A stretch of 64,000 nucleotides of DNA from Pararoseomonas sp. SCSIO 73927. Its GTDB lineage: Bacteria; Pseudomonadota; Alphaproteobacteria; Acetobacterales; Acetobacteraceae. The stretch is taken from NCBI RefSeq assembly GCF_037040815.1, contig NZ_CP146232.1, forward strand, positions 1,482,501 to 1,546,500. Reading direction: 5' to 3'. The translations under genes were made by a program, and so were the position numbers. Under the pieces are notes generated by a model. It was not told the origin of the DNA. It worked only from the letters and a program-made list of their open reading frames with translations, and ran no database searches. This document shows positions 12,931 to 60,940 of this stretch, piece after piece (the stretch's first letter is position 1; each line of letters starts with the position of its first letter).

Positions 12931-13181
12931 CCGGAGAGGGCGCCGCCCTCTCCGGACCTCTCCCGCCAAGGGCCTGAGGCCCTTGGATCCCCGTTTGGCT
13001 GCCGCGGAACCCACCTGAACCGATGCGCGGGAACCTGCCGCACCCCGTCCTGCCCGTGCAGTCGCCTCGGCTCGTGGAGCCGAGGCGCACCGTCAACCGG
13101 ACGACTCCAACTCGAAGAAAAAGATGATGGTGGGAGGTCCGGAGGGAGGAAGAATTCCTTCTTCCTCCCTCTGGCCACGGC
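12931..13181 (-). repeat. Composite intergenic repeat, copy A (modules 1-2-3)
   Basis: Fills most of the 363-bp gap between the GAF and GST genes. Module 1 has two GC hairpins (12931-12954 and 12968-12984). Module 2 is a stem at 13063-13087 with arms CGCCTCGGCTC and GAGCCGAGGCG. Module 3 is a hairpin at 13142-13171 with 13-bp arms GAGGGAGGAAGAA and TTCTTCCTCCCTC around TTCC (GGAA on the minus strand). Both neighbouring genes are on the plus strand, so this copy does not follow a stop codon in the usual orientation. Confidence 0.85.
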
Positions 13182-13261
13182 GGGCCAGCCATAAGGCCGA
13201 GACGAACCTTGCGGACCCGTCGCATCCGGGCGGAGAAGCAGGGACCGGGAAAGGAAATGCC

Positions 13262-13909
13262 ATGACGACGCTGCTGGTCTGGGGGCGTGCGAACTCCGTC
13301 AACGTCCAGAAGGTGCTCTGGTGCTGCGACGAGCTGGGCCTGGCTTTCGAGCGCCGGGACGCGGGCATGGCCTTCGGCGTCGTGGACACCCCGGAGTACC
13401 GGGCCATGAACCCGAACGGCCGGATCCCGACCCTGGTGGACGGCGACGTCGTGCTCTGGGAGTCCCACTCCATTCTCCGCTACCTCGCGCTCCGCGAGAT
13501 CGAGCAGGGGCTGGGCACGAAGGGCATCTACCCCGAGGGCGCCGCGCCGCGCGCCCGGGTGGACCGGTGGCTGGACTGGGTGCTCTCCACCTTGCAGCCC
13601 GCCGAGCGGGCGCTCTTCTGGGGCATGGTGCGCACCCGCCCGGCGGAGCGCGACATGGCGGCGATCCGCGCCGCGGCGAAGGCGTCCGGCGAGGCGTGGC
13701 GGGTGCTCGACGCCCATCTGGCGCACGGGCACCCCTACGTGGAGGGCGAGGCCCTCACGCTCGCGGACATCGCCCTCGGTTCCTATGCCCGGCGCTGGTT
13801 CGGCGTGGAGGTGGAGAACCGGCCCGCCCTGCCCCGGTTCGAGGCCTGGTACGGGCGCCTTGCCGAGCGGCCGTCCTTCCAGCGCCATGTTGCACCGCCC
13901 ATGACGTAG
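13262..13909 (+). CDS. Glutathione S-transferase family protein
   Basis: A 215-residue GST. The N-terminal thioredoxin-like domain (about 1-82) has NSVNVQKVLWCCDELG and NPNGRIPTLVDGDVVLWESHSILRYL, whose ESHSI is the glutathione gamma-Glu site. The helical domain (about 92-205) carries LTLADIALGSYARRW. The ATG at 13262 starts exactly at the family N-terminus (MTTLLVWGRANS). Substrate is unknown; the fold is certain, and conjugating or reductive activity is inferred from the family. Confidence 0.92.
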   Translation: MTTLLVWGRANSVNVQKVLWCCDELGLAFERRDAGMAFGVVDTPEYRAMNPNGRIPTLVDGDVVLWESHSILRYLALREIEQGLGTKGIYPEGAAPRARVDRWLDWVLSTLQPAERALFWGMVRTRPAERDMAAIRAAAKASGEAWRVLDAHLAHGHPYVEGEALTLADIALGSYARRWFGVEVENRPALPRFEAWYGRLAERPSFQRHVAPPMT

Positions 13910-13992
13910 CGGCGGCCGCCCCGACGGGCTCTAACGGCCGTCGCACGTCGTGCTCGATGGCGTCGGTCGTCTCCCTCAGGGGCAAGAGCCCG

Positions 13993-14511
13993 TCAGCCGG
14001 GGTCCGGGGCTCCGCGGGTCATGTCGGGATGCCGCCGGATGAGGTAGCGGTGCCGCCCGTCCAGCACGAGGACGCCGCCCTGGTTGTGGACGGTGCTGCG
14101 CAGCCCGACGACGCCGGTCGTGCGGTTCGGCGCCAGCTCGTCCACCTCCAGCGCCGCGTAGAGTGTATCGCCAACGTAAACCGGGTGCAGGAAGCGGCTG
14201 GACTGCTCCAGGAAGGCCCGCAGCGAGTCCTGCACGAGGTGCGGGAAAAGGCCCGCCCCCGCCACGGTCTGGATGGCCACCTGGTACCCATGGGCCAGCA
14301 TGTCCGGCAGCCCGTGGGCGCGGCAGTAGGCGCGGTCGTAGTGGATGGGGTGGTTGTCCCCGCTCGCGGCCTGGAAGGCGAGGAAGATCGCCTCCGTCAT
14401 GGTGCGGCTGGGCAGCGGGAAGCGCTCGCCGATCCGGAAGTCGTCGAACCAGCGCTGCTCCGCCACCATCCGGTGCGCGCGGGGATCGAAGCCCGCTTCT
14501 CCCTCCGTCAT
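13993..14511 (-). CDS. MaoC family dehydratase
   Basis: A 172-residue hot-dog fold protein of the MaoC / (R)-specific enoyl-CoA hydratase group. The hydratase motif is visible as ASGDNHPIHYD followed by the glycine-rich LPDMLAHGYQ. AAGGAG lies upstream of the ATG at 14511, which I chose over longer in-frame options. It converges on the GST gene. It is likely a fatty-acyl or dicarboxylic enoyl-CoA hydratase or a mesaconyl-CoA-type hydratase; the exact substrate is not readable. Confidence 0.88.
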   Translation of the reverse strand: MTEGEAGFDPRAHRMVAEQRWFDDFRIGERFPLPSRTMTEAIFLAFQAASGDNHPIHYDRAYCRAHGLPDMLAHGYQVAIQTVAGAGLFPHLVQDSLRAFLEQSSRFLHPVYVGDTLYAALEVDELAPNRTTGVVGLRSTVHNQGGVLVLDGRHRYLIRRHPDMTRGAPDPG

Positions 14512-14626
14512 CGCGGCTCCTTCCCCATCGTCACGCCCGGCGGCCGGGCATCCCGGGTGCCTTCCCCGCCGATGACGGCCCGGCGGTCCGCCCGGCGCCC
14601 GGCGCCCGGCCGCCCCGCCGGCGCGG

Positions 14627-15991
14627 TCAGCGACCCGGCGCATCCCGGACCAGCCGGACGAAGCCCGCGATGATCGCCGGCATGTCCACGGCCTTCGCCG
14701 GCATCCGCTCCGGCGGGAGGGTCAGGCTGTCGAGGAATTGTCCCCCCGCGGTGAAGAGCGACATCTCCAGCGCGTCACCGACGAACTCGAGGCGGCAGAC
14801 AACCTCCTCCTCCCCGGCCACCTGCCGGGCCCCGGCGATGAAGGCCACGATCTCCTCCAGGCCAGGGGTTCCCGCGCCCGCCTCGTCCAGGAACTCCGCG
14901 ATCTCCGCCTCCGTCTCGGGGAGCGGGACCAGGGCCAGCGGCACGCAGCCGCTCGCCTCGAAGACCGCGCCGCGCCAGCCGTCGAACAAGGCGGCAGCGC
15001 GGGACTCCTCCGGCGTCATTCTCTCCTCGTCCTCCCCGGCGGGGAGGGGCAGGCCGCCCTGCGCGGCGATCTCGTCCCAGACCGGGATGTCCCAGTCGAT
15101 CTCCAGCCCGACCAGCACGCCGAAGCCGCCCGCCAGCAGCCCCTCCGCGTCGCCCGGCGGCAGATCGCGGGGCTCCTCCCCCGCCACCATGTCGAGGAGC
15201 GCGCGCCGGAGGGCGCCGGGTGAGAGGCCGGCGAGGATCTTCGGCGCTCGCCATCCCGGCAGGAACCGGACCTCGAGCGCCTCCTCCAGCGCCCCGGAGG
15301 CGAGCAGCCCCTCCGCGATGGCGGCCGCGTCCGGCAGCCCCCCAGGGGGAAGGGCTACCGGCAGGGCAACCAGCTCCGCCCATCCCGAGGGGCCGAGCGC
15401 GCCGCCCGCCGCCACCGAGAGAAGGGTGGCGGCCAGCTCCTCCGCGTTCCCGTTCCCGTGGCGCTCGGCGGCCTTCCGGATCGCCAGGTCCAACACCTCG
15501 GCCCGTCCCGCCGACAGCAGGTCCTGGGCCAGGGCGTCGAGCTCGTCCTCATCGCCGGCGACGAAGGCAGCCAGCAGCCGGTCCGCGGCGGGACCGGGCT
15601 GCCCCCCGGGGCGAGGCTCCGGCGGGGGCGAGCCGGCCGGCCCGAGGCCGAGCAGTCCGAGGGCGGCATCGCCCCGGAGAAGGCGGTCCCGGTCGATCCA
15701 GGCGCGGCGGCTCTCCGGCGTGTCCACCCGCCCCTGCATCCAGCGCCGGAACGCCCCCCGGTCCGCCCGCTGCACGAACACCTCGACGCCGGCCGCGAGC
15801 ATCTCGGCCGCGACGGCCCGGTTCACCGCCCGGACGGTCTCGGGGTCCGTTTCGCCGGGCCGCAAGGTGTCCAGCGCATCGGCGTCCGCGAAATGGGTCA
15901 GGAGCACCGCGTCGAGGCCGTCGGCGACGTCCCGCGCCAGCTCCACGGCCGTCCTCACGGCTTCGTCCAGGCGGTCTTCTTGGTTCGGCAT
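14627..15991 (-). CDS. Hypothetical acidic protein, 454 residues
   Basis: I do not recognise a family. The start MPNQEDRLDEAVRTAVELARD at 15991 marks the switch to normal codon use; in-frame codons further 5' run antisense through the enoyl-CoA hydratase gene. The protein is strongly acidic, rich in Ala/Leu/Glu, with no signal peptide or membrane segment, and looks mainly helical. Near the N-terminus there is a short basic patch (RADRGAFRRWMQGRV). A MaoC gene follows 115 bp downstream on the same strand. It is certainly coding; function unknown. Confidence 0.75.
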   Translation of the reverse strand: MPNQEDRLDEAVRTAVELARDVADGLDAVLLTHFADADALDTLRPGETDPETVRAVNRAVAAEMLAAGVEVFVQRADRGAFRRWMQGRVDTPESRRAWIDRDRLLRGDAALGLLGLGPAGSPPPEPRPGGQPGPAADRLLAAFVAGDEDELDALAQDLLSAGRAEVLDLAIRKAAERHGNGNAEELAATLLSVAAGGALGPSGWAELVALPVALPPGGLPDAAAIAEGLLASGALEEALEVRFLPGWRAPKILAGLSPGALRRALLDMVAGEEPRDLPPGDAEGLLAGGFGVLVGLEIDWDIPVWDEIAAQGGLPLPAGEDEERMTPEESRAAALFDGWRGAVFEASGCVPLALVPLPETEAEIAEFLDEAGAGTPGLEEIVAFIAGARQVAGEEEVVCRLEFVGDALEMSLFTAGGQFLDSLTLPPERMPAKAVDMPAIIAGFVRLVRDAPGR

Positions 15992-16146
15992 GGCTGGTAT
16001 CTGAACTCTGGACGGGGTGCGCCTCCTGATGCCCCTAACAGCGCCCCCGGGGAAGGGCGCCGGGACCCTCTCCGGGCACAGTCCCGCGATCCGTCGGGAT
16101 TGCCGATCCAACCGTTCCGGCGCTCCCGCCGGAACGGGCCGGCTCC

Positions 16147-16944
16147 TCAGCTCCCCGTGAAGCGCGCCGGCCGCTTCTCCAGGAAGGCGGCCCGCCCCTC
16201 CTGATGGTCGGCGGAGAGGAAGAGGGTGGCCTGGAAGTGCCGCTCCGCCTCCAGCGCCGCCTCCAGCCCGGCGGCGAGCATGGACTTCGTCAGGGCCATG
16301 GGCGCGGGGGCCTGCTCCGCCAGGTAGCGGGCGCGCTCCAGCGCGCGGGGCAGGGCCTCGCCGCGGTGGACCACCTCCTCCACCAGGCCGATGCGCTCGG
16401 CCTCGGCCGCCGTCACCTGCTCGTGCAGCATCAGGATGCGGCGGGCGCGGCCGGCGCCCACGCGGGCGGGCAGGGTGAAGGGCAGGCCGAGATCGGCCAT
16501 CAGCCCCACCTTGCCGAAGCCCGCCATGAAGCGCGCATCCTCGGCGGCCACGATCAGGTCGCAGGCGCAGGCGAGGGACAGGCCGGCGCCGACGCACCAG
16601 CCCTCCACCGCCGCCACCACGGGCTTGGACCCGGTGGCGAGGAGGCGGATGGAGCGGTGGGCGCGGCGCAGCCTCTCCCGCCCGCCGAGGGCATTCTCCA
16701 CCTCCATACCGGAGAGGTCGCCACCGGAGCAGAAGGTGCCGGAGGCGCCGGTGACGACAACGGCGCGGATGGCGGGGTCGCCCTCCGCCGCCTCCAGCAC
16801 GTCCGCCATGCGGTCGCGCAGCGGCACGGCCAGCGCGTTGCGGCGCGCGGGGTAGTCCAGGGTCAGCACCAGCACGGCGCCGGCGCGCGCGGCGTGCAGC
16901 ACCATGCCGTCGGGCAGGGGGGTCTTGCTCGGAGTGTCGCTCAT
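16147..16944 (-). CDS. Enoyl-CoA hydratase/isomerase family protein
   Basis: Crotonase-fold protein, 265 residues. The oxyanion-hole segments are SGTFCSGGDLSGM and AVEGWCVGAGLSLACACDL. In the second catalytic region (FGKVGLMADLGL) an Asp stands where hydratases have Glu, as in PaaG-type isomerases, so ring-opening or isomerase activity is as likely as plain hydration. Its start lies 11 bp from the stop of the CoA-transferase B gene, so the three genes probably form one catabolic operon on the minus strand. Confidence 0.9.
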   Translation of the reverse strand: MSDTPSKTPLPDGMVLHAARAGAVLVLTLDYPARRNALAVPLRDRMADVLEAAEGDPAIRAVVVTGASGTFCSGGDLSGMEVENALGGRERLRRAHRSIRLLATGSKPVVAAVEGWCVGAGLSLACACDLIVAAEDARFMAGFGKVGLMADLGLPFTLPARVGAGRARRILMLHEQVTAAEAERIGLVEEVVHRGEALPRALERARYLAEQAPAPMALTKSMLAAGLEAALEAERHFQATLFLSADHQEGRAAFLEKRPARFTGS

Positions 16945-16954
16945 CCCGCGCGCC

Positions 16955-17611
16955 TCAGGCGCCGGCCGTCTCGCGCGCGTCCTGCAGCGGCGCGGCGGTC
17001 ACGGTGCGGAGGTGGTCCAGGGTCACGCCCGGGGCGAGGTCGCGCACGGCGAAGCCCGCCTCCGTCACGTCGAGCACGGCGAGGTTGGTGTAGACCCGCG
17101 ACACCGCCCGCATCGCCGTCAGCGGGTAGCCGCAGCGCTCCACCAGCTTCGGGCGCCCGTCCTTCGTGGTGTGCTCCATCATCACCCAGACGCGCTTCGC
17201 GCCGGCCGCGAGGTCCATGGCGCCGCCCACCGCCGGCGCGGTGTCGTTCTCGCTGGTGGCCCAGTTCGCGATATCGCCGTTCTCGGCCACCTCGAAGGCG
17301 CCGAGCACGCAGAGGTCGATGTGCCCGCCGCGGATCATCGCGAAGCTGTCCGCGTGGTGGAAGTAGCTGCCGCCGGGATGGAGCGTGACGGGCGCCTTGC
17401 CGGCGTTGATCAGCCAGGCGTCCTCACGCCCCTTCTCCGGCGCCGGGCCCATGCCGAGGATGCCATTCTCGGAGTGCAGCACCACCTCGCGCCCCTCGGG
17501 GATGTGGTCGGCGATGAGGGTCGGCATGCCGATGCCGAGGTTGCAGTACCAGCCGTCCGGGATGTCCTTCGCGGCGCGGGCGGCCATCTGGGTGCGGGAC
17601 CAGGGTTCCAT
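16955..17611 (-). CDS. pcaJ: 3-oxoacid / 3-oxoadipate CoA-transferase subunit B
   Basis: Beta subunit of a class I CoA-transferase, 218 residues. The catalytic glutamate is Glu48 in the SENGILGMG motif; NLGIGMPTLIADHIPEG and GGAMDLAAGAKRV are also typical. With subunit A it moves CoA from succinyl-CoA to a 3-oxoacid. The ATG at 17611 has GGAGG eight bases upstream; an ATG five codons earlier lies over that ribosome site. The symbol reflects similarity to PcaJ; ScoB/AtoA-like substrates are possible. Confidence 0.85.
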   Translation of the reverse strand: MEPWSRTQMAARAAKDIPDGWYCNLGIGMPTLIADHIPEGREVVLHSENGILGMGPAPEKGREDAWLINAGKAPVTLHPGGSYFHHADSFAMIRGGHIDLCVLGAFEVAENGDIANWATSENDTAPAVGGAMDLAAGAKRVWVMMEHTTKDGRPKLVERCGYPLTAMRAVSRVYTNLAVLDVTEAGFAVRDLAPGVTLDHLRTVTAAPLQDARETAGA

Positions 17612-17632
17612 GCTCGTTTCCTCCATCGCCTT

Positions 17633-17744
17633 CAGGGCGTCACGTACGGGGCATCGCGTTCAGGGCGTCATGTGCCGGATGTCGAGTGCGGGGCGTCGAG
17701 TGCAGGGCGTCACGCCAGGGGCGCCAAGCCGGCGGCGTCAGGCC
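17633..17744. repeat. 14-bp tandem repeat array between CoA-transferase subunit genes
   Basis: Units begin at 17633, 17647, 17661, 17675, 17689 and 17703, exactly 14 bp apart, with core CRGGGCGTCRNGTN; for example CAGGGCGTCACGTA and CAGGGCGTCATGTG. Two more degenerate units (17717, 17731) run into the end of the subunit A gene. It fills nearly all of the spacer between the pcaI and pcaJ reading frames. Fourteen is not a multiple of three and no frame is preserved. Confidence 0.8.
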
Positions 17745-18433
17745 GCCGCGGTCTCGCCCCAGGGGGCGCCGCGCTTCACGTTGAGGACGCGGCTCACGAA
17801 GATGCCGGGCGTCACCACCCGCTCCCCCTCGATCGCGCCCAGCTCCACGATCTTCTCCGCCTGCACGATCGTCAGCTTCGCCGCCATCGCCATCACCGGG
17901 TTGAAGTTCCGCCCGCTGCGCCGGAAGGTCAGGTTGCCCCAGCGGTCGGCCTCCCAGGCCTCCACCAGCGCCACGTCGCCGGGCAGGGCCAGCTCCATCA
18001 CGTGGGGGCGGCCGTTGAACTCCCGCTCCTCCTTGCCCTGGCCGAGCTTCGTGCCGGCGGCGGTGGGGGTGAAGAAAGCGGGCACGCCCGCGCCGGCCGC
18101 GCGCATCCGCTCCGCCAGCGTGCCCTGCGGCACGATCTCCAGCTCCAGCCGGCCGGCCTTGTACAGCTCCTCGAACACCACCGACCCGACGCTGCGCGGG
18201 AAGGAGCAGATGATCTTCCGCACCCGGCCCAGCTCCATCAGCCGCGCCAGCCCCGTGCGCCCCGTGCCCGCGTTGTTGGCCACGATCGTCAGGTCCTTCG
18301 CCCCCTGCTCGATCAGCCCCTCGATCAGGTCGTCGGGCTGGCCCGCGGCGCCGAAGCCGCCCACCAGCACCGTGCTGCCGTCCGCAACCCCCGCCATGGC
18401 CTCGGCCATGTCCCGGACGATCTTGTTGATCAT
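17738..18433 (-). CDS. pcaI: 3-oxoacid / 3-oxoadipate CoA-transferase subunit A
   Basis: Alpha subunit of a class I CoA-transferase, 231 residues. It begins MINKIVRDMAEAMAGV and has the CoA-binding glycine motif VGGFGAAGQPDDLI, then ICSFPRSVGSVVFEELY and IVPQGTLAERMRAAGAG, a pattern close to PcaI of the beta-ketoadipate pathway. It is the first gene of the A-B-hydratase series on the minus strand, separated from subunit B by an unusual 14-bp tandem array. Whether the physiological substrate is 3-oxoadipate or acetoacetate cannot be told from sequence. Confidence 0.88.
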   Translation of the reverse strand: MINKIVRDMAEAMAGVADGSTVLVGGFGAAGQPDDLIEGLIEQGAKDLTIVANNAGTGRTGLARLMELGRVRKIICSFPRSVGSVVFEELYKAGRLELEIVPQGTLAERMRAAGAGVPAFFTPTAAGTKLGQGKEEREFNGRPHVMELALPGDVALVEAWEADRWGNLTFRRSGRNFNPVMAMAAKLTIVQAEKIVELGAIEGERVVTPGIFVSRVLNVKRGAPWGETAAA

Positions 18434-18558
18434 GCGCCCGCGCTCCTCCAGTCACTGCGGTCCGCCCCAGGGAATGCTCAGCATCCCCGGTGATTGCGCC
18501 AACGGAACGGATCGCCCAAGCTCACCCGAAGGGACATGCCGCGCCGGGGAGGCAAGCG

Positions 18559-19641: not shown

Positions 19642-19674
19642 TCGGCGCCAGAGAGGACATGCGAACGCGGCGCC

Positions 19675-20244: not shown

Positions 20245-20292
20245 GGGCGGGGAAACTGCCACAGGCGGAAGGGAATGGGGAGGTTTGCACGG

Positions 20293-20553
20293 GTGGCCCC
20301 AGGGGGAGAGAAGGAATTCTCTCCCCCTGGACCCCCACTCATCTTTTTCTGCGGGGCTGCCGCGGAAGGCCGGGCCGGCCCGCGAGGTGACGGATCTTCC
20401 GCAGCGGCAGCGCGGAGGGACAGGCGCCGCGCCGAGCGGCCAAGCCGCTCGGCGCGGCGCAAGCCGGGCCTCGCGCGGCAGCCCCTTGAAAGAAGATGAG
20501 GGCGGGGGTTCCAGGGGGAGGGAGAATTCCTTCTCCCTCCCCCTGGCCACGGC
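20293..20553. repeat. Composite intergenic repeat, copy B (two inverted module-3 hairpins)
   Basis: Occupies the 313-bp gap before the transglutaminase stop. The left hairpin, 20299-20330, has perfect 14-bp arms around GGAA. The right hairpin, 20511-20546, has 16-bp arms CCAGGGGGAGGGAGAA and TTCTCCCTCCCCCTGG around TTCC. Between them a perfect 17-bp stem (20424-20440 with 20444-20460) has loop CAA. The right hairpin lies 11 bases from the transglutaminase stop codon and, read from that gene, has the GGAA loop. Confidence 0.85.
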
Positions 20554-20557
20554 GATG

Positions 20558-21625: not shown

Positions 21626-21852
21626 GGGGGCGTTGTCTCCACACGGGGAACGGATGACGCGCCGTTCTTGTGACCGCTCTGCGGAGCCAAGCCAAGCGGG
21701 AGAAAGTTCCATCCGCTGCGCGTATGGCGGGTATCCGCTTCTTCCTATGGTCCGGACGCGAGTGAAGAGACATATCTCACATAACGAGATGACACCCTCG
21801 AGCCACCGTTCGCGCAAGTGCCCACCCCGAATACCCGAACAGAGTACCCGCC

Positions 21853-22086: not shown

Positions 22087-22125
22087 GCCGCTCCTGCCAC
22101 CCCTCCTCGTGACCGGGGCCCGGTC

Positions 22126-26198: not shown

Positions 26199-26448
26199 GG
26201 AGAGGGCGTTGCCCTCTCCACACCTCTCCCGCCAGGGGCCTGAGGCCCCTGGACCCCCTTTCGGCTGCCGCCGCGCTATCCTGACACGGAGTTTCGGCAT
26301 GACGGGCGTCATTCCGATCACGCCGTCGCCTCGGGTCGTGGACCCGAGGCGCACCGTCAGCAGAGTGCTTCCACCTACTAGAAAAAGATGATGGTGAGGG
26401 GTCCGGGGAGAGGAAGAATTCCTTCTTCCTCTCCCTGGCCACGGACCA
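26199..26448 (-). repeat. Composite intergenic repeat, copy C (modules 1-2-3)
   Basis: Fills most of the 391-bp gap between the UDP-xylose synthase start and the corA stop. Module 1 hairpins are at 26199-26220 and about 26234-26252. Module 2 (26326-26352) pairs CGCCTCGGGTC with GACCCGAGGCG. The module 3 hairpin, 26406-26435, has arms GGGAGAGGAAGAA and TTCTTCCTCTCCC around TTCC. It lies 24 bases from the corA stop codon, oriented so that corA mRNA reads the GGAA loop. Confidence 0.9.
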
Positions 26449-26459
26449 TCAGCGCAGGA

Positions 26460-30085: not shown

Positions 30086-30356
30086 CGGCCGCCCCGGGGG
30101 AGAGGGAGAAGGAATTCTCCCTCTCCCCGGCCCCCTCACCCTCATCTTCTTCTGGGAGGCTGCCGCGGGATGCGGGGCTTGCGGCTCGCCTCGGGTCCAT
30201 GACCCGAGGCGCGGGCCATGTCCGCCGGTCCCGCATGACAATCCTGCTTCACGGGCCTGCTTCACGGGCCAGCCCCACATTCCGCGGCAGCCTCCCAGAA
30301 GAAGATGAGAGGGGGTCCAGGGGGAGAGAATTCCTTCTCTCCCCCTGGGGCCACCC
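30086..30356. repeat. Composite intergenic repeat, copy D (inverted module-3 pair with module 2)
   Basis: Most of the 457-bp space between tatA and the CHAP gene. The left hairpin, about 30094-30130, has loop GGAA and one bulge. Module 2 is GCCTCGGGTC paired with GACCCGAGGC (about 30187-30211). The right hairpin, 30317-30348, has perfect 14-bp arms CCAGGGGGAGAGAA and TTCTCTCCCCCTGG around TTCC. It sits 11 bases from the CHAP stop, the same spacing as copy B. I see nothing else in 29903-30085. Confidence 0.88.
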
Positions 30357-38452: not shown

Positions 38453-38703
38453 GCGCGTGGCCCGCAGGGGCTCCGCCCCTGCACCCCGCTGGGGACCCCG
38501 GCGGGGGTCCCCAGACCCCAGCGGCTGGGCTGCCGCGGAACCCACGGGAGCCGTTGCTCCTCTCGATCGGCATTCATCCGGCCCTTGCAGTCGCCTCGGG
38601 TCATCGACCCAAGGCGCGCCGTCAGCCGGGAAAGACCAAAGCCTGGAAGAAGATGATGGTGAGGGGTCCGGGGAGAGGAAGAATTCCTTCTTCCTCTCCC
38701 CGG
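38453..38703 (-). repeat. Composite intergenic repeat, copy E (modules 1-2-3)
   Basis: Begins right after the rpsO terminator. Module 1 has AGGGGCTCCGCCCCT and a GGGGACCCC / GGGGTCCCC hairpin. Module 2 lies at about 38592-38616, with one arm base changed. The module 3 hairpin, 38670-38701, has 14-bp arms (GGGGAGAGGAAGAA and complement) around TTCC. Unlike most copies it is about 470 bp from the nearest minus-strand stop (dnaJ), which has its own terminator. Confidence 0.88.
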
Positions 38704-38765
38704 GACAGACCGCCCGCGCCGAGGGTGGACCCATGGCCGGTCCTTCCAGGGCTTCTGGCAGGGGC

Positions 38766-42582: not shown

Positions 42583-42785
42583 CCCGCGAGGGGAAGAAGG
42601 AATTCTTCCCCCTCGACCCCCATCATCATCTTCTTCGAATTGGTGCCAGGGGAACCTCTCCCGCGCCGAAGGTCACCGCCCCTCGGCGAACCGCAAGCCG
42701 TGCATCCCGCGGCAGCCCCCCAGAAAAAGATGAGGGTGGGGGTCCAGGGGGAGGGAGAATCCCTTCTCCCTCCCCTTGGGGCCGC
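42583..42785. repeat. Composite intergenic repeat, copy F (inverted module-3 pair)
   Basis: In the 388-bp gap between dnaK and a Bug gene. The left hairpin, 42588-42614, has loop GGAA (11-bp arms, one bulge). The right hairpin, 42744-42779, has 16-bp arms with one G-T-type pair, loop TCCC, and ends 8 bases from the Bug stop codon. The module 2 position holds only a weak remnant. Between dnaK and the left hairpin there is a G-rich stretch (42521-42528) and no gene. Confidence 0.82.
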
Positions 42786-47439: not shown

Positions 47440-47565
47440 GGTGGCCCCAAGGGAGGGGAGAAGGAATTCTCCCCTCCCTTGGAACCCACCCCTCATCTTC
47501 TTCTGAAGGGCTGCCGCGGGATGCGGGGGCTTGCGGTTCGCCGAGGGCCGATGACCCTCGGCGCG
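47440..47565 (+). repeat. Composite intergenic repeat, copy G (modules 3-2)
   Basis: In the 382-bp gap between convergent degT-like and gcrA genes. The module 3 hairpin, 47447-47482, has a perfect 16-bp stem (CCAAGGGAGGGGAGAA with complement) around GGAA on the plus strand. The outer CCAA/TTGG differ from CCAG/CTGG of other copies, a paired change. Module 2 (about 47539-47562) pairs CGCCGAGGG with CCCTCGGCG. It lies 107 bases after the DegT stop. Confidence 0.88.
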
Positions 47566-47657
47566 GGACAGGTCTCGCCGGCGCCAGCCTGAGGAATGGG
47601 ATGATGGGGTCCGGGTCCTTCTCCTGGCCCGGGCAGGCGCGAAGTCTCATGAAACAC

Positions 47658-50621: not shown

Positions 50622-50638
50622 GTTTCCGACTGTCCGGC

Positions 50639-50888
50639 ACCAGGGGGCCTTGCCCCCTGGAACCCCCACCAGGAGGCTGAGCCTCCTGGACCTGCATCGG
50701 GCTGCCGCGGGACTGACGGGAGATGTCGGCCCTCTACGATCAGCACCCCATCCTGCCCCTGCAGTCGCCTCGGCTCCACGAGCCGAGGCGCACCGTCAGC
50801 GAAGATCAGACCAACTCGAAGAAGAAGATGATGGTGAGGGGTCCGGGGAGAGGAAGAATTCCTTCTTCCTCTCCCTGGCCACGGACCG
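50639..50888 (-). repeat. Composite intergenic repeat, copy H (modules 1-2-3)
   Basis: Nearly the whole 278-bp space between convergent baiN-like and hdeD genes. Module 1 has CCAGGGGG/CCCCCTGG (50640-50660) and AGGAGGCTGAGCCTCCT hairpins, then GCTGCCGCGG. Module 2 (50765-50789) is a CGCCTCGGCTC stem. The module 3 hairpin, 50846-50875, has 13-bp arms around TTCC. It lies 24 bases from the hdeD stop, exactly as copy C from the corA stop, and the flanking CGCAGGATCA is also shared. Confidence 0.9.
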
Positions 50889-50899
50889 GAGCCGCAGGA

Positions 50900-51502: not shown

Positions 51503-51594
51503 GGCCGGCGGCTCCTGCGCGGGGATGCGGATGGATGCCGTTGCAGCGGGACGCGGCGCGGAAGGTTGCGCCGGCTGCCCGCCGCGGGTGGGCG

Positions 51595-51996: not shown

Positions 51997-52025
51997 CGTT
52001 TGTTTTTGAAGGCAGATGGCCCGCT

Positions 52026-53186: not shown

Positions 53187-53200
53187 CCCGGCCCCGCCCT

Positions 53201-53650: not shown

Positions 53651-53656
53651 CGCGGC

Positions 53657-54478: not shown

Positions 54479-54481
54479 GGC

Positions 54482-54952: not shown

Positions 54953-55104
54953 GTCCCTGGAGCGTCCTTGATCTGTCGGGGCGCCCGGCCGGGGCGCCCA
55001 GGAACGGGCGGCACGCGCCGGGCCGGTGAAGGCCCGGCGCGGGCGGCACGGCGGGGGGCGCCGGGCCGCGATGCGTCCGTCGGAGGCCTGCCGTCTATCG
55101 CACC

Positions 55105-55142
55105 TGCAAAGCATATGCAACGCGGTTGCGAACGACTTGCAG
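55105..55142 (-). promoter_or_regulatory. Candidate Fur-like operator upstream of the exbB operon
   Basis: A 17-bp imperfect palindrome TTGCGAACGACTTGCAG (55126-55142) lies next to TGCAAAGCATATGCAA (55105-55120). It resembles the TGCGAAT/ATTCGCA-type Fur boxes described for Rhodospirillales-like bacteria. It is about 150 bp before the first gene and in the gap between divergent operons. Iron control of tonB genes is usual, but the match is only approximate. Confidence 0.35.
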
Positions 55143-55250
55143 ATAAAGATGGGCGGACCTGCCAACTCCGCGTGATGCCCGGCCCTTCCCGCATCCCTGC
55201 CGCATGTTAAGGCTTTGAACCCGCTGCACCGCGACACGAAAGGGGCCGGC

Positions 55251-55457
55251 ATGTCCGACCTGCCGAACATCGAAGTCCAGGGAGAGAGCGAGCCCGCCGT
55301 GGCCCTCGCCCTGCTGCGAATCATCATGGCCTCCTCGAAGGACGGCACGGAGCACGATCGGGACTGGATCCTCTCCACCTACGCCGACTGCCTGGCCGTG
55401 GTGGGCGGGGCGGAGGTCTCCTACGACGAGGAGGACGAGGGGAAGGAAGGGGGCTGA
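55251..55457 (+). CDS. Small hypothetical protein
   Basis: A 68-residue acidic protein, no signal peptide: MSDLPNIEVQGESEPAVALA, a helical middle and an acidic tail (SYDEEDEGKEGG). The ATG at 55251 has AAAGGGG about six bases upstream and is preferred to an ATG 36 bases earlier. Divergent from the exb/ton operon. No family recognised; codon bias fits a real gene. Confidence 0.5.
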   Translation: MSDLPNIEVQGESEPAVALALLRIIMASSKDGTEHDRDWILSTYADCLAVVGGAEVSYDEEDEGKEGG

Positions 55458-55641
55458 TCCGGCACCGGAGCGCGAACGGCGTTGGAAAGAGAGGGCGCTC
55501 CCCTCGGACCCCTCTCATCCCCCTCTCCCAGAGAGGCGCTCAGGGGAGGCGCCAAAAGGCCATGACCCTCGGCGGTGACGGCCCGGGCGGGGCCCGACGG
55601 GCCTCCATCGTCTCTGCCCGCGCGGCAGGGTAAGGGAGGGC

Positions 55642-56997
55642 ATGGACGAAGCCGCCGCCCTGCTGGACGCCGCCTGCGCGCATTTCGCCACCGGTGTCAC
55701 CCGCCCTCTGCCCGCCCGCATCGCCGCGCTGCGCGCGCTGCGGAACGGGATGGAGGCGATGGAGGGCGAGATCCTGGCCGCGCTGCGGTCCGATCTCGGC
55801 AAGTCGGACTTCGACTCCTGGACCTCCGAGATCCTGCTCGTGCGGCAGGAGATCGCCCTCGCCCTGAAGCGCCTGCCGCGCTGGGCGGGGGAGCGGCGCG
55901 CGGGCGGGCGCTGGTTCCACTTCCCCGGCCGCGCCGCTCTTCGGATGGAACCGCGCGGGGCCGTGCTGATCCTCGGGCCGTGGAACTACCCCGTGCAGCT
56001 CTGCCTCGTGCCGCTGGTGAGCGCGGTGGCGGCGGGGAATGCGGTGGTGCTGAAGCCTTCCGAGGTGGCGCCGGCCTCGGCGGAGGTGCTGGCGCGGCTC
56101 GTCGCGCGCTGCTTCGCGCCCGGCCACGTGGCGGTGGCGCAGGGCGGCCCGTCCCTCGCCGCCGCGCTGACGGCGCAGCCCTTCGACCACCTCTTCTTCA
56201 CCGGAAGCACGGAGACCGGGCGCAAGGTGGCCGAGGCGGCCGCCCGCAACCTCGCCACCACCACGCTGGAGCTGGGCGGCGCCAATCCCTGCGTCGTGGA
56301 CGCGGACGCCGACCCCGTCCCCACCGCGCGGCGCATCGCCTGGGCGAAGTTCCTCAACGCCGGCCAGACCTGCCTCGCCCCGAACCACGTTCTCGTCCAT
56401 GAATCGAAGGCGGAGGCCCTGCTGGACGCGCTGCGCGCCACGATCGCCCGCTTCTACGGCGAGGACGGGCGGGGGATGCAGCGCGTGGTGAACGCGCGAC
56501 ACCTGGCGCGGCTGGAGGCGGTGCTGCCCCGCGGCCGCGCCGCGATCGGCGGCGGGGTGGACCACAACGCGCTGCACATCCAGCCCACTGTCCTGCTGGA
56601 CCCCGACCCCGCGCTGCTGGAGGAGGAGATCTTCGGCCCGGTCCTGCCCGTGGCGACCTGGCGGGACCGGGACGCGCTGCTGGCCGGCCTCGCCCGCCGC
56701 CCCTCCCCCCTCGCCCTCTACGTCCACACGCGGGACGCGGGTTTCGCGGAGGCGGTGGCGGCCGCCCTGCCCTCCGGCGGGCTCTGCGTCAACGAGCACA
56801 TTGTCCACTGCACCGTCCCCGACCTGCCCTTCGGCGGCGTCGGGCCCAGCGGCTCCGGGCGCTACCACGGCGAGGCCGGCTTCGAAGCCTTCTCCAACCC
56901 CCGCGCCCTGTTCCGTCAGCCCGCCGGGATCGACCCGACCCTCCGCTACCCGCCCCCGAGGGCACCGCTCTCTATAATCCGCCGGCTGATGGGCTAG
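55642..56997 (+). CDS. Aldehyde dehydrogenase family protein (class 3-like)
   Basis: A 451-residue ALDH of the compact class 3 / coniferyl-type group. LILGPWNYPVQLCLVPLV is the class 3 N-terminal signature, FFTGSTETGRKV binds NAD, LELGGANP contains the general-base Glu, and the nucleophile Cys is in LNAGQTCLAPNHVLV. GGGAGGGC precedes the ATG. It has a shorter N-terminus than class 1/2 enzymes and ends RRLMG. Oxidation of medium or aromatic aldehydes is likely; substrate not known. Confidence 0.94.
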   Translation: MDEAAALLDAACAHFATGVTRPLPARIAALRALRNGMEAMEGEILAALRSDLGKSDFDSWTSEILLVRQEIALALKRLPRWAGERRAGGRWFHFPGRAALRMEPRGAVLILGPWNYPVQLCLVPLVSAVAAGNAVVLKPSEVAPASAEVLARLVARCFAPGHVAVAQGGPSLAAALTAQPFDHLFFTGSTETGRKVAEAAARNLATTTLELGGANPCVVDADADPVPTARRIAWAKFLNAGQTCLAPNHVLVHESKAEALLDALRATIARFYGEDGRGMQRVVNARHLARLEAVLPRGRAAIGGGVDHNALHIQPTVLLDPDPALLEEEIFGPVLPVATWRDRDALLAGLARRPSPLALYVHTRDAGFAEAVAAALPSGGLCVNEHIVHCTVPDLPFGGVGPSGSGRYHGEAGFEAFSNPRALFRQPAGIDPTLRYPPPRAPLSIIRRLMG

Positions 56998-57069
56998 CGG
57001 CCCGCGCCGCTGCAACCGCCCGATCCACCCCGCGCTCTCCTGGCTCGAACAGGCCGGGAGGAGCGCATC

Positions 57070-57276
57070 ATGGCCCAGGACAGCAACCGGCAGGACGGTG
57101 GTCCCGATCCCGGCGACGCGGTTCCGCCCGGCGTGGCCCCGGTAAACCCCGTGCCGCTGACGGACGAGGACCGGAAGGTGAAGCGGAAGCTGGAAGAACT
57201 CGGCGACGGCAAGCCGGCCGAAGGCGAGCCTCAGGGGCGGGCGGAGACCGATGGGCCGGAGCAGCGCGGCCGCTGA
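57070..57276 (+). CDS. Small hypothetical hydrophilic protein
   Basis: A 68-residue, Pro/Gly/Asp/Glu-rich protein (VPLTDEDRKVKRKLEELGDG in the middle), probably disordered with one short charged helix. GGAGGAG lies seven bases before the ATG, a strong ribosome site. No membrane segment and no family recognised. It follows the aldehyde dehydrogenase gene by 72 bp on the same strand. Confidence 0.5.
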   Translation: MAQDSNRQDGGPDPGDAVPPGVAPVNPVPLTDEDRKVKRKLEELGDGKPAEGEPQGRAETDGPEQRGR

Positions 57277-57300
57277 CAGCCGTGTTCTGGGCGGTCCGGA

Positions 57301-57544
57301 CCCAGGGGGCTTCGCCCCCTGGACCCCCACCAAGGGCCTGAGGCCCTCGGATCCCCTTCTGGCTGCCGCCACGCCGGCCTGACACGAGGTCTCGGCGTGA
57401 CGGGCCTCTTCCTGCCTTGCAGTCGCCTCGGGTCATCGACCCGAGGCGCACCGGCAGCCGAGCAAATTAAAAGCTTAGAAGAAGATGATGGTGAGGGATC
57501 CGGGGAGAGGAAGAATTCCTTCTTCCTCTCCCTGGCCACGGACC
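57301..57544 (-). repeat. Composite intergenic repeat, copy I (modules 1-2-3)
   Basis: In the 291-bp gap between convergent genes. Module 1 hairpins are CCAGGGGG/CCCCCTGG (57302-57322) and AGGGCCTGAGGCCCT. Module 2 (57424-57448) pairs CGCCTCGGGTC with GACCCGAGGCG. The module 3 hairpin, 57503-57532, has 13-bp arms around TTCC. It is 35 bases from the Bug stop codon in the GGAA-sense orientation. Confidence 0.9.
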
Positions 57545-57567
57545 GACAGCGAGAGGCGCGGAAAGCC

Positions 57568-58539
57568 TCACTCCACCCTGATGTTCTCCGCCCGCACCAC
57601 CTCCCGCATCGCCGCGCGCTGCGCGGTGACGAAGCGGGCGAGGTCCTCCCGGCTGCCGCCGGCGGGCAGCACGCCGATGCCGTTCAGCAGCCGGTCCCGC
57701 CACGCGGGGTCCGACAGCGCCTGATTCAGCGCGGCGTTCAGCCGGTCCAGCACGGGCGCCGGGGTGCCGGCGGGGGCCCACATCGCCACCCAGTCGTTCA
57801 CGTCGAAGCCGGGGAAGCCCCCCTCCGCCACCGTGGGCACCTCCGGCAGGAAGGGCAGGCGCTGCGCGGTGGTGACGGCGAGCGCGCGCAGCCGCCCCTC
57901 CCGGATCAGGGGCACGGCCTGGGGCGTGGTGGAGAAGGCCATGTCCACCGCACCCGCCAGCACGTCCTGCATCGCGGGCGCCGATCCGCGATAGGCGACG
58001 TGGGTAAGGCCGAGATCGGCCCGGCGCGACAGCACGGCGCCGGCCAGGTGCGGGCCGGAGGCGATGCCGGAGGAGGCGTAGGTCATGCCCCGCTTCTTCC
58101 GCGCGGCCTCCATCAGCGCGGGCAGGCTCGCCGGGCCGGAGGCAAGAACCACGAGGACCTGCGGCAGGATGCAGAGGTGGCCGATCGGGGCGAAGGCCGT
58201 CACGTAGTCGAAGGGCAGGTTCGTCAGCAGGGCGGGGTTGAGCGCCTGGCCGGAGGCGTCCGAGAGGATGGTGTAGCCGTCCGGCGCCGCCGCCGCGACG
58301 GCGGCCGCACCGATGGAGCCCGTCGCGCCCGCCCGGTTCTCCACCGCCATCGGCTGGCCAAGGATCGCCCCCATCGGCTCCGCGACGAGGCGGGTGGGCA
58401 CGTCCACCCCGCCGCCCGGCGCGTAGGAGGCGATCACCCGGATCGGCCGGGACGGCCAGGCCTGGGCGCGCGCGGCGGAGGGCAGGACGGGAAGGGCCGC
58501 CGCCGTGGAAAGCAGCCGGCGGCGCGTGGTTGCGGGCAT
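57568..58539 (-). CDS. Bug family tripartite tricarboxylate transporter substrate-binding protein
   Basis: A 323-residue periplasmic receptor. The signal peptide begins MPATTRRRLLSTAAALPVLP and ends near residue 26. Landmarks are RVIASYAPGGGVDVPTRLV, AVENRAGATGSIGAAAVA, THVAYRGSAPAMQDVLAGAVD and FLPEVPTVAEGGFPGFDV. The correct start is the ATG at 58539: the same frame stays open far upstream, but only as antisense to the M3 peptidase and MYG1-like genes. No permease nearby. Confidence 0.95.
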   Translation of the reverse strand: MPATTRRRLLSTAAALPVLPSAARAQAWPSRPIRVIASYAPGGGVDVPTRLVAEPMGAILGQPMAVENRAGATGSIGAAAVAAAAPDGYTILSDASGQALNPALLTNLPFDYVTAFAPIGHLCILPQVLVVLASGPASLPALMEAARKKRGMTYASSGIASGPHLAGAVLSRRADLGLTHVAYRGSAPAMQDVLAGAVDMAFSTTPQAVPLIREGRLRALAVTTAQRLPFLPEVPTVAEGGFPGFDVNDWVAMWAPAGTPAPVLDRLNAALNQALSDPAWRDRLLNGIGVLPAGGSREDLARFVTAQRAAMREVVRAENIRVE

Positions 58540-58650
58540 GGTTCTGCCTCGTGACGTTTCCTGCGCCCGAGGTTGCGAGGGGCACGCCGCGGGCGCAAGG
58601 GCGGCCGCCCCACCTTGACGGTCCCATCGCATCGGCCGCGTATGCGCGGC

Positions 58651-60672
58651 ATGACCGAGCCCAACCCCCTCCTGACCCCTTGGGACACCCCCTTCGGCCT
58701 GCCCCCCTTCGACCGCATCCGCCCCGAGCACTTCGTGCCGGCCTTCGAGGCCGCGATGGCGGAGCACCTGGAGGAGATCGCGGCCATTGGCGCCGACCCG
58801 GCGGAACCGGGCTTCGCCAACACAATCGAAGCGCTGGAGCGCAGCGGGCGGGCCCTGGCGCGGGTGGGCAACGTGTTCGGCAACCTCGTCGTCAGCCTCG
58901 GGGGCGAGGCGCTGGAGGCGGTGGACACGGAAATGTCGCCGCGCCTGGCCGAGCACGGGATGCGCGTCTCGCTCGACCCCGCGATCTTCGCGCGGGTGGA
59001 CGCGCTGCATCGCCAACGGACGCTGCTGGGGCTGGAGGAGGACCAGATGCGGCTGCTCGATCGCACGCATCTCGGCTTCATCCGCTCCGGCGCCGCGCTG
59101 GACGAGGCGGCGAAGGCGCGAATGACGGAGATCTCCTCCCGCCTTGCGGTGCTGCACACGGAATTCGGCCAGAACGTCGTCCATGACGAGAAGGTCTGGC
59201 ATCTCGCGCTGACGGAAGCCGACCTGGACGGCCTGCCGGATTTCCTGCGCGACGGCATGGCGAGCGCTGCGGCAGAGCGGAACCTGCCGGGCTACGCCGT
59301 CACCCTCTCCCGCTCCCTCATCGAGCCCTTCCTCACCTTCTCCGCCCGGCGGGACCTGCGCGAGGCCGCCTACCGTGCCTGGACCGCGCGCGGCACCCAC
59401 GCCGGCGAGCACGACAACCGCCCGCTGATCCCGGAAATCCTGGCGCTGCGCGCGGAGCGGGCGAAGCTGCTGGGCTACGCCACCTTCGCCGAGTTCCGGC
59501 TGGCCGATTCCATGGCCGGCACGGTGCAGGCGGTGCAGGGCCTGCTGGCCGAGGTGTGGGAGCCCGCCAAGCGCAAGGCGGCGAAGGAGCGCGACCGCCT
59601 CCTCGCGGTGGCCCGCAAGGAGGGCTTTGAGGGCGAGCTGGCCGCCTGGGACTGGCGCTACTACGCCGAGAAGGTGCGCCAGGCCGATTACGAGCTGAAC
59701 GAGGCGGAGCTGAAGCCCTACTTCCTCCTCGGCAACATCCAGCAAGCGGCCTTCGACACCGCCGGTCGCCTCTTCGGCCTTTCCTTCACGGAAGTGGAGG
59801 CGCCCGCCTACCATCCGGACGTCCGCACCTACGAGGTGCGCGACGCCGACGGCCATGTCGGCGTCTTTCTCGCCGATCCCTACGCGCGCGCCGACAAGCG
59901 CTCCGGCGCCTGGATGAGCAGCTACCGCGACCAGGAGAACCTGGACGCCCCCGTCTCCCCGGTGATCGTCAACAACAACAACTTCGCCAAGTCCGAGCCC
60001 ACGCTGCTGAGCTTCGACGACGCGGAAACCTTGTTCCACGAGTTCGGCCACGCCCTGCACGGGCTGCTGAGCAAGGTCCGCTACCCCGCCCAGTCCGGCA
60101 CCTCCGTCCGCCGCGACTTCGTGGAGCTGCCGAGCCAGATCTACGAGCACTGGATGGCGCTGCCGGAAACGCTGCGCCTCTACGCCCGCCACCACGAGAC
60201 GGGCGCGCCGATCCCGGACGCGCTGATCAGCCGCCTCCTCGCCGCCCGCGGCTTCAACCAGGGCTTCGCGACGGTGGAGTACACCTCGTCCGCCCTCATC
60301 GACATGGCGCTGCACAGCCACCCCGCGCCGGGCACAATCGACATCGAGAGCTTCGAGAAGGAGTTTCTCGGCTCCATCGGCATGCCCGCCGAGATCGGCA
60401 TCCGCCACCGCCCCGCGCACTTCCAGCACCTCTTCGCCGGCGGCGGCTACGCGGCGAGCTACTACGCCTACATGTGGGCGGAGGTGCTGGACGCGGACGG
60501 CTTCGACGCCTTCACCGAAGCGCAGAACCCTTTCGACCCCGCCACCGCCGCGCGCCTCCGCACGCTCTACTCGGCCGGCGACACGCGCGACCCGATGGCG
60601 CTCTACGTGGCGTTCCGCGGCCGCACGCCGAGCACGGCGGCGCTGCTGCGGACGCGGGAGCTGGTGGACTGA
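58651..60672 (+). CDS. M3 family oligopeptidase (Dcp/OpdA-like)
   Basis: A 673-residue zinc metallopeptidase of the thimet oligopeptidase family. The zinc motif HEFGH is at 463-467, the third ligand Glu about 25 residues later, and GYAASYYAYMWAEVLDADGFDAF near the C-terminus is the substrate-binding region of Dcp/OpdA. It has no signal peptide and probably clears peptides in the cytoplasm. An ATG three codons upstream (58642) is an alternative start. Repeat copy J begins right after its stop. Confidence 0.94.
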   Translation: MTEPNPLLTPWDTPFGLPPFDRIRPEHFVPAFEAAMAEHLEEIAAIGADPAEPGFANTIEALERSGRALARVGNVFGNLVVSLGGEALEAVDTEMSPRLAEHGMRVSLDPAIFARVDALHRQRTLLGLEEDQMRLLDRTHLGFIRSGAALDEAAKARMTEISSRLAVLHTEFGQNVVHDEKVWHLALTEADLDGLPDFLRDGMASAAAERNLPGYAVTLSRSLIEPFLTFSARRDLREAAYRAWTARGTHAGEHDNRPLIPEILALRAERAKLLGYATFAEFRLADSMAGTVQAVQGLLAEVWEPAKRKAAKERDRLLAVARKEGFEGELAAWDWRYYAEKVRQADYELNEAELKPYFLLGNIQQAAFDTAGRLFGLSFTEVEAPAYHPDVRTYEVRDADGHVGVFLADPYARADKRSGAWMSSYRDQENLDAPVSPVIVNNNNFAKSEPTLLSFDDAETLFHEFGHALHGLLSKVRYPAQSGTSVRRDFVELPSQIYEHWMALPETLRLYARHHETGAPIPDALISRLLAARGFNQGFATVEYTSSALIDMALHSHPAPGTIDIESFEKEFLGSIGMPAEIGIRHRPAHFQHLFAGGGYAASYYAYMWAEVLDADGFDAFTEAQNPFDPATAARLRTLYSAGDTRDPMALYVAFRGRTPSTAALLRTRELVD

Positions 60673-60686
60673 TCCGCCGGGTGGCG

Positions 60687-60940
60687 GTCCGTGGCCAGGG
60701 AGAGGAAGAAGGAATTCTTCCTCTCCCCCGGACCCCTCACCATCATCTTCTTCTAGGCTTGGGAATACCCTGCTGACGGTTCGCCTCGGGTCGATGACCC
60801 GAGGCGACTGCCAGGGCAGGAAGGGGCCTGTCCTGCAGAAATACCGTCTCAGGACGGCGCGGCGGCAGCCAGACGGGGGTCCAGGGGCCTCAGGCCCTTG
60901 GCGGGGGTTCCAGGGGGCGGCGCCCCCTGGCTCCGGACAG
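60687..60940 (+). repeat. Composite intergenic repeat, copy J (modules 3-2-1)
   Basis: The only complete copy in plus orientation, in the 289-bp gap after the M3 peptidase. The module 3 hairpin, 60698-60727, has 13-bp arms GGGAGAGGAAGAA and complement around GGAA, 25 bases after the stop. Module 2 (60782-60806) is a CGCCTCGGGTC stem. Module 1 (about 60883-60930) has AGGGGCCTCAGGCCCTT and CCAGGGGG/CCCCCTGG hairpins. Order is exactly the reverse of copies A, C, E, H and I. Confidence 0.9.

What the first reader, a model, noticed from the sequence alone, without database searches (positions are those of the whole stretch)
12931..60940. Family of about ten composite intergenic repeats built from three stem-loop modules
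Seen in sequence: copies A-J (12931, 20293, 26199, 30086, 38453, 42583, 47440, 50639, 57301, 60687). Six have the same full order, module 1 (paired GC hairpins, CCAGGGGG-type and AGGGCCTGAGGCCCT), GCTGCCGCGG, module 2 (CGCCTCGGGTC stem), GAAGAAGATGATGG, module 3. One full copy (J) is an exact order inversion. Four others use a second form with module 3 alone or as an inverted pair. They occupy nearly every gap above 240 bp and no coding sequence. No associated transposase was seen. This looks like a REP/BIME-type or MITE-type family; whether it has been described for this group I cannot tell.
Basis: seen in the sequence. Interest (0 to 1): 0.82.

Follow-up and report, generated by a model that had tools for sequence, protein, structure and literature searches.

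The report
Stem-loop repeats at gene ends
In this bacterium and some close relatives, a family of about 250-base DNA elements that fold into several hairpins occurs many times at the spots just after genes end, mostly in the part of the chromosome near where replication starts; it resembles known bacterial repeat families, but the enzyme thought to spread those was not found.

Summary
Observation confirmed. All ten copies exist. Six (A, C, E, H, I, J; J inverted) share one about 250-bp architecture; B, D, F are long inverted repeats with module 3 at both ends; G keeps one clear end. The genome holds 57 strict and 96-120 looser matches to the module-3 linker (controls 0-1); module order is fixed; stems show paired changes. 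Copies sit after stop codons: 60 of 62 lie in convergent or tandem gaps. Seven copies (one a collapsed palindrome) are missing from the matching gap in Pararoseomonas indoligenes; hisA carries copies in opposite orientations in different species; 5 of 5 synteny breaks counted touch a copy. So this is a dispersed, apparently insertable 3'-end element. It is not a RAYT-driven REP family: no Y1 transposase in 15 of 15 genus genomes. No target duplication was found, so MITE status is unproven.

Unexpected: copies centre on the origin (49 of 57 within 1 Mb of parS, p 2e-14) and were absent from a conserved far region (0 of 63 conserved gaps), though the compared stretches were not chosen blind. Best reading: a new REP/BIME-like, non-autonomous family whose RNA hairpins act at gene 3' ends. 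Mobiliser and function are unproven.

The parts
12931..13186 (+). Copy A, type 1, full order (subtype with CCGGAGAGGGCGCCGCCCTCTCCGG as hairpin 1a); tandem gap, 32 nt after the stop of 12422-12898
20292..20553 (.). Copy B, type 2: module 3 inverted at both ends, GGCTGCCGCGG inverted inside, central hairpin; 4 nt from the stop of 20558-21625 (-)
26199..26450 (+). Copy C, type 1; abuts the stop of the corA-like gene 26460-27458 (-)
30086..30356 (.). Copy D, type 2; 4 nt from the stop of 30360-30881 (-)
38453..38714 (+). Copy E, type 1 with divergent hairpins 1a/1b; convergent gap between rpsO and dnaJ, behind a terminator-like hairpin at 38422-38439
42583..42785 (.). Copy F, type 2 (shortened interior); 2 nt from the stop of 42788-43762 (-)
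47441..47573 (-). Copy G, read as type 2 with one clear module 3 and module 2, other end decayed (scored as a single module 3); convergent gap next to a gcrA-like gene
50636..50889 (+). Copy H, type 1; convergent gap, 14 nt and 10 nt from the two stops
57298..57547 (+). Copy I, type 1; convergent gap of 291 nt that is 4 nt in Pararoseomonas indoligenes
60683..60934 (-). Copy J, type 1, reversed; abuts the stop of the dcp-like gene 58642-60672; shared with P. indoligenes, absent at this gap in R. pecuniae, SXEYE001, R. nepalensis and KE2513

Best explanation
The copies are one family of non-autonomous, dispersed, hairpin-rich elements (about 250 bp) that settle directly behind stop codons and lie in 3' regions. 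SHOWN: fixed architecture, paired changes in stems, near absence from divergent gaps, closeness to stop codons, matching gaps with and without the element in two species, opposite orientations at hisA, copies at synteny breaks, no Y1 transposase in the genus genomes searched, origin-centred distribution. INFERRED: the element was spread by an unidentified factor, now absent or not recognised; once in place its hairpins are kept because they act at the RNA level, ending or shielding transcripts from both sides (convergent genes above all) and protecting 3' ends; in some cases the element end supplies the TGA stop codon. The origin bias would come from where insertion happens or is tolerated.
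For: Copy number with controls 0-1. Module order: 62 of 64 module groups in 464 kb of this genome contain module 3 and none mixes the orientation of modules 1, mid and 2 (one P. indoligenes group does). Covariation in 50 of 91 listed full-length copies, mainly the best-scoring, from this genome and P. indoligenes: 97.7% of cells paired, 14 of 45 pairs and 61 cells changed on both sides (shuffle mean 13.3 cells; slid controls at most 10). Context: gaps of at least 240 nt hold a copy in 27 of 30 convergent, 30 of 51 tandem and 2 of 24 divergent cases here; 23 of 24, 23 of 40 and 0 of 14 in P. indoligenes stretches. Tandem copies of both species: median 16 nt from the upstream stop, 104 nt from the next start, nearer the stop in 47 of 55. 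Matching gaps in P. indoligenes: 20 shared, 7 only here, 2 only there. hisA: copy in one orientation in two species and in the other in two, of 14 orthologues. Synteny breaks: 5 of 5 counted lie within 120 nt of a copy, a zone of 6.1% of the sequence. Two of three P. indoligenes sites without the standard copy fold into strong unrelated hairpins (z -3.9, -6.1; the third -0.3).
Against: No transcript data. No target-site duplication or known autonomous relative, so insertion is inferred from presence/absence at about 90% DNA identity; loss in P. indoligenes is not excluded case by case. No terminator-like site with a T run was reported within any of the ten copies in scans covering all ten, so classical intrinsic termination is not supported. 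Gene calls come from my own script. Stop-codon supply is clear only for copy J; at H the stop position equals that of R. pecuniae. Stretches near the origin and P. indoligenes contigs were fetched partly because they held matches, which raises the occupancy figures. Paired stem changes could also come from hairpin-templated repair.
Confidence: 0.6

Rival explanations
1. RAYT-mobilised REP/BIME (REPIN-like) family: a Y1 HUH transposase recognises the hairpins and spreads them.
For: Hairpins, 3'-end location and paired inverted units are like the REPs described in PMC3733652.
Against: No PF01797 match in own genome or in 15 of 15 genus genomes; units are far longer than 20-40 bp; no replication-strand bias (24 of 57, p 0.29).
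Confidence: 0.08
2. Classical MITE: deletion derivative of a DNA transposon with terminal inverted repeats, moved by a DDE transposase that left or lies elsewhere.
For: Type 2 copies are one long inverted repeat; by eye, type 1 ends share GGTCC...CCAGGG and often TGA...TCA; copies differ between species.
Against: No consistent direct repeat at the ends of 67 copies above shuffled pairings; copy I corresponds to TGAC^GCC with no duplication. Whether an autonomous relative exists was not searched by transposase family.
Confidence: 0.25
3. Chromosome-organising sites: the copies bind a nucleoid or topology protein (as BIMEs are reported to bind gyrase) at convergent gene ends around the origin.
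For: Origin-centred distribution, preference for convergent 3' ends, conserved GAAGAAGATGATGG block outside the helices of type 1.
Against: No binding data; 8 of 15 genus genomes have no match, so the role would be dispensable.
Confidence: 0.12
4. Origin clustering is only a by-product of conserved versus accessory DNA, as with the repeat deserts of P. fluorescens SBW25.
For: Such deserts, with strain-unique genes more common towards the terminus, are reported in PMC2718517 (passages). PMC3733652 notes that GTAG repeats of two species are restricted to core regions (passage).
Against: In a far region syntenic with P. indoligenes (88 of 135 genes matched reciprocally) 0 of 63 conserved convergent/tandem gaps hold a copy here, against 27 of 141 near the origin, Fisher p 2.6e-5. 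But the near stretches and P. indoligenes contigs were picked with matches in view and the far ones for few matches, the far sample is small, and it lies 1.1-1.45 Mb from parS, not at the terminus.
Confidence: 0.35

Closest known systems
GTAG-/CGTC-tagged REPs and BIMEs (PMC3733652; abstract listing, passages and section 15 read)
   Same: Palindromic, many copies, mostly between convergent or unidirectional genes, many within 20 bp of 3' ends; GTAG termini often supply a stop codon (TAG).
   Different: Those are 20-40 bp units; here about 250 bp with four hairpins in fixed order and no Y1 transposase found in the genus; the paper says CGTC repeats are missing in Acetobacteraceae.
Br-REP1 of Bradyrhizobium (PMC5082802; passages and section 15 read)
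   Same: Alphaproteobacterial intergenic repeat with three palindromes, first found in overlapping 3' UTRs of convergent genes; abundance differs strongly between relatives.
   Different: Different sequence; the central 20-mer occurs with or without its flanking palindromes, whereas here the composite order is the rule; no origin bias in the section read.
P. fluorescens intergenic repeat families R0/R2 and repeat deserts (PMC2718517; passages read)
   Same: Intergenic repeats, some MITE-like, strain-specific families, uneven along the chromosome with strain-specific DNA towards the terminus.
   Different: 60 deserts scattered over the genome there, 93.7% of their genes unique to the strain; here copies are also lacking from a conserved far region (small sample).
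REPs predicted by RepRanger in Lichenicola cladoniae (PMC12306157; passages read; that this genus is in Acetobacteraceae is recalled)
   Same: Hairpin repeats counted by a general tool (1,369) in what I recall as the same family.
   Different: Only a count was seen; sequences not compared.
RIME / ABC intergenic mosaic elements of Rhizobiaceae (recalled; titles only in the listing)
   Same: Mosaic, palindrome-rich intergenic elements of Alphaproteobacteria.
   Different: Sequences not compared here.

Membership tests
RAYT-associated REP/BIME | Y1 HUH (REP-associated tyrosine) transposase in the genome | tested here: not met
   PF01797 absent in 15 of 15 genus genomes; control genomes ring in 5 of 14
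RAYT-associated REP/BIME | 20-40 bp palindromic unit | tested here: not met
   Conserved unit about 250 bp with four hairpins; solitary module 3 is a minority (6 of 64 groups in this genome's stretches)
RAYT-associated REP/BIME | GTAG or CGTC tag at the foot of the stem | tested here: inconclusive
   By eye on the consensus: CGTC occurs between hairpins, not at a stem foot; no formal test
RAYT-associated REP/BIME | Extragenic, next to gene 3' ends | tested here: met
   60 of 62 copies here and 53 of 54 in P. indoligenes in convergent or tandem gaps (2 divergent here; 1 unplaced at a stretch end there)
MITE | Terminal inverted repeats | tested here: inconclusive
   Clear in type 2; short and imperfect, by eye, in type 1
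MITE | Target-site duplication | tested here: not met
   No signal in 67 copies and none at copy I
MITE | Related autonomous transposon | not tested
   Only Y1 transposases were searched; DDE families were not
Known structured RNA (Rfam) | Match to an Rfam family at the gathering score | tested here: not met
   Only a TPP riboswitch at 23821-23925 in the window
Intrinsic terminator | GC hairpin followed directly by a T run | tested here: not met
   No terminator-like site reported within any of the ten copies in scans of 12500-31000, 38000-48000 and 50000-61500

The most novel reading that the evidence does not exclude
A mobile hairpin element that inserts exactly behind stop codons (sometimes supplying the TGA) and whose spread or function is tied to the replication-origin part of the chromosome, moved by a so far unrecognised non-Y1 system.
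Probability: 0.17. Interest if true: 0.78.

Novelty: new variant of a known kind. Interest (0 to 1): 0.52.

Why it matters
REPs are thought to be non-autonomous elements moved by RAYT (TnpA-REP) transposases (abstract listing of PMC8266576); here a family with about a hundred matches differs between sister species in a genus where no Y1 enzyme was found. In the stretches studied it accounts for the size of most large convergent gaps (27 of 30 of at least 240 nt), lies at synteny breaks, and has an origin-centred distribution. Because 8 of 15 genus genomes lack it, the question 'insertion bias or positional function?' can be tested directly.

Tried and rejected
Target-site duplications: offset pairs of both flanks scanned in 67 copies; the best scores sit at conserved element-end letters and stay near the permuted values, with scattered z up to 4.5 among 1,600 offset pairs. 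Replication-strand bias: 24 of 57, p 0.29. Orientation relative to transcription in tandem gaps: 27 against 23. TGA use by adjacent genes is not raised: 47 of 64 against 274 of 362. Element-supplied stops as a general rule: supported for copy J (dcp one codon shorter than in the four outgroups; six of seven orthologues have one more residue, one none), not decisive for hisA, against it for H. R. pecuniae as outgroup gave only 3 usable flanking genes and 16 reciprocal matches.

VOID RESULT: (150 family genomes) used a pattern with one N too many; the positive controls G000 and G021 gave 1 and 0, so its negatives say nothing. Spread outside the genus rests (10 named genomes, some of the same genus) and on one 125-bp, 80.8% match on a Roseomonas mucosa plasmid between two convergent genes.

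Corrections: one search entered 20 of 51 for the KE2513 parS contig; a recount of the list gives 18 of 51. The pattern had one A too few. The P. indoligenes-only gap at G0b 71449 looks like a false or decayed match. Selection: near-origin stretches beyond 1.81 Mb and the P. indoligenes contigs C7, C11, C59, C60, C61 were fetched because earlier searches showed matches there, C1 and C12 because they showed few; only the 20 evenly spread stretches are free of this.
Full report
What is in the window. The ten copies are real. A, C, E, H, I and J align end to end over about 250 bp. The consensus of 67 single-module-3 copies from this genome shows sharp edges: left GG..CCAGGGGGCGCCGCCCCCTGG, then a second hairpin CCAAGGGCCTGAGGCCCCTGG, GGCTGCCGCC, a variable stretch, the CGCCTCGGGTC...GACCCGAGGCG hairpin, AGAAGAAGATGATGGTGAGGGGTCC, the module-3 palindrome and TGGCCACGGACCG. 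B, D and F are a second form with module 3 at both ends; B folds into one long hairpin (z -11.8). Outside the window the order is kept: of 64 module groups in 464 kb of this genome 62 contain module 3, and apart from inverted module-3 pairs only shortened versions of the same order occur; in P. indoligenes one group has its module-1 hit in the other orientation.

How many and where. The strict linker pattern occurs 57 times (reversed control 0); a shorter one 96 times at up to one mismatch (control 0). In the genus, 7 of 15 genomes including the window's own have 28 to 96 matches and 8 have none. Among ten named genomes, P. indoligenes SG15 has 74 and Roseomonas sp. KE2513 51 at up to two mismatches, two others have one, six none; reversed controls 0 or 1. 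G001 and G016, and G005 and G023, show the same places and are taken as the same genomes. The nearest named genome is P. indoligenes (dcp protein 97% identical).

Gene ends. With genes called by a codon-usage script (not an outside annotation), gaps of at least 240 nt hold a copy in 27 of 30 convergent, 30 of 51 tandem and 2 of 24 divergent cases in 464 kb; 3 more copies lie in gaps of 100-240 nt, and none in 234 gaps under 100 nt. P. indoligenes stretches give 23 of 24, 23 of 40 and 0 of 14, with 7 more in shorter convergent gaps and one copy unplaced at a stretch end. In tandem gaps of both species 47 of 55 copies are nearer the upstream stop than the downstream start; median 16 nt. Some copies touch the stop at a constant distance: exactly 7 nt before the module-1 match in 10 of 61 left ends, 9-12 nt after the module-3 match in 16 of 88 right ends (my count, not tested against chance). 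At several left ends where no gene stops, TTCTGA..GGTCC is still present, so there the TGA belongs to the element end. For copy J the dcp gene ends ELVD* here; six of seven orthologues without the copy have one more residue.

Insertion and recombination. Copy I is absent from P. indoligenes, where the two stop codons are 4 nt apart. Among neighbouring genes conserved in both species, convergent gaps: 9 with a copy in both, 5 only here, 0 only there, 9 in neither; tandem: 11, 2, 2, 103; divergent: 0, 0, 0, 31. One of the seven 'only here' cases (315122) is a type 2 copy opposite a single shortened palindrome, a collapse rather than a clean empty site. Of three other such sites folded, two form strong unrelated hairpins in P. 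indoligenes and one does not. At hisA, 4 of 14 genus orthologues have a copy: same orientation here and in P. indoligenes, opposite in G012 and G021, which means separate insertions or in-place inversion. Five synteny breaks (inversions, translocations or multi-kb insertions) were counted among blocks of at least 700 bp less than 45 kb apart; all five lie within 120 nt of a copy, a zone covering 6.1% of the sequence. Ends of alignable blocks tend to fall at repeats, so the count may be inflated.

Structure. In 50 aligned copies (of 91 listed, mainly the best-scoring, from both species), the four helices pair in 97.7% of cells; 14 of 45 pairs show changes on both sides, 61 cells against 13.3 in shuffles and at most 10 in slid controls. 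Copies are related and the structure came from their consensus. This fits selection on the folded strand; hairpin-templated repair could also produce paired changes.

Origin. Two parS-like sites lie at 1,656,636 and 1,660,241, beside mnmE, mnmG, rsmG, a parA-like and a parB gene, the usual alphaproteobacterial origin neighbourhood (recalled). Of the 57 strict matches 49 lie within 1 Mb (expected 37%, p 2e-14) and their circular mean is 1,639,641. Evenly spread 20-kb stretches: 5 module-3 hits in the 5 nearer ones, none in the 15 farther ones, which contain 35 convergent and 151 tandem gaps. In relatives the parS contig carries 18 of 51 (expected 2.4) in KE2513, at least 9 of 47 (1.1) in G020 from an incomplete listing, 6 of 39 (1.6) in G011, 7 of 40 (2.0) in G012, 3 of 42 (1.0, p 0.07) in P. 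indoligenes and 5 of 77 (3.0, p 0.17) in G021; genome lengths there are rounded. In a far region conserved with P. indoligenes, no copy sits in 7 convergent or 56 tandem conserved gaps here, while P. indoligenes has 2 in those 7; near the origin it is 14 of 23 and 13 of 118 here. The regions of this last comparison were chosen with the matches in view, so it is weaker than its p value (2.6e-5).

Mobiliser. No PF01797 protein in any of 15 genus genomes. Other transposase families were not searched.

Function. A 3'-end role is the best-supported inference: near absence from divergent gaps, closeness to stops, maintained stems, unrelated hairpins at two of three folded sites without the standard copy. 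No terminator-like site with a T run was reported within any of the ten copies. REPs fewer than 16 nt from a stop are reported to lower translation (PMC12306157, passages), and REP transcripts to affect termination and mRNA lifetime (PMC5082802, passages and section 15). Nothing here shows expression.

Prior art. Searches for Roseomonas with intergenic repeat (0 papers) and with palindromic, intergenic and repeat (0 papers), and for Acetobacteraceae with repetitive extragenic palindromic (4 papers, of which only PMC3733652 is about such repeats), found no description of this family in the held library; subscription journals and preprints are not covered. RepRanger reports REPs in Lichenicola cladoniae (passage); those were not compared.

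Noticed in passing
window 23821-23925 (-): TPP riboswitch (RF00059, 70.4 bits) in a 363-nt gap without a repeat copy.
   Followed up: no
window 38422-38449: Behind rpsO a terminator-like hairpin with a T run stands directly in front of copy E, so that gene end has both.
   Followed up: no
window 47662-47704 (-): A long terminator-like hairpin (19 pairs) lies in the same convergent gap as copy G, next to the gcrA-like gene.
   Followed up: no
window 52477-52848: GC-rich repeats of 24 nt spacing inside the predicted gene 52026-53186 (-).
   Followed up: no
window 46904-46996 (-): ARAGORN tRNA-Trp call lies inside the predicted gene 46176-47339; possibly a false call.
   Followed up: no
L231, L232, L233, L236 (hisA loci): The same hisA 3' end carries copies in opposite orientation in different species.
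   Followed up: partly
G000 C1 about 1.0-1.42 Mb: Within the origin-proximal zone there is a 0.4-Mb stretch with almost no copies (none of 57 strict matches; one at 1,219,238 in the listed part).
   Followed up: no
G000 C1 1797622-1797821 against P. indoligenes C61 194310-194395: A type 2 copy here corresponds to one short palindrome there, suggesting collapse of the inverted pair.
   Followed up: partly
L286 (Roseomonas mucosa plasmid p1-AD2, 148499-148623): A diverged half-length relative (80.8% over 125 bp) between two convergent genes on a plasmid.
   Followed up: partly
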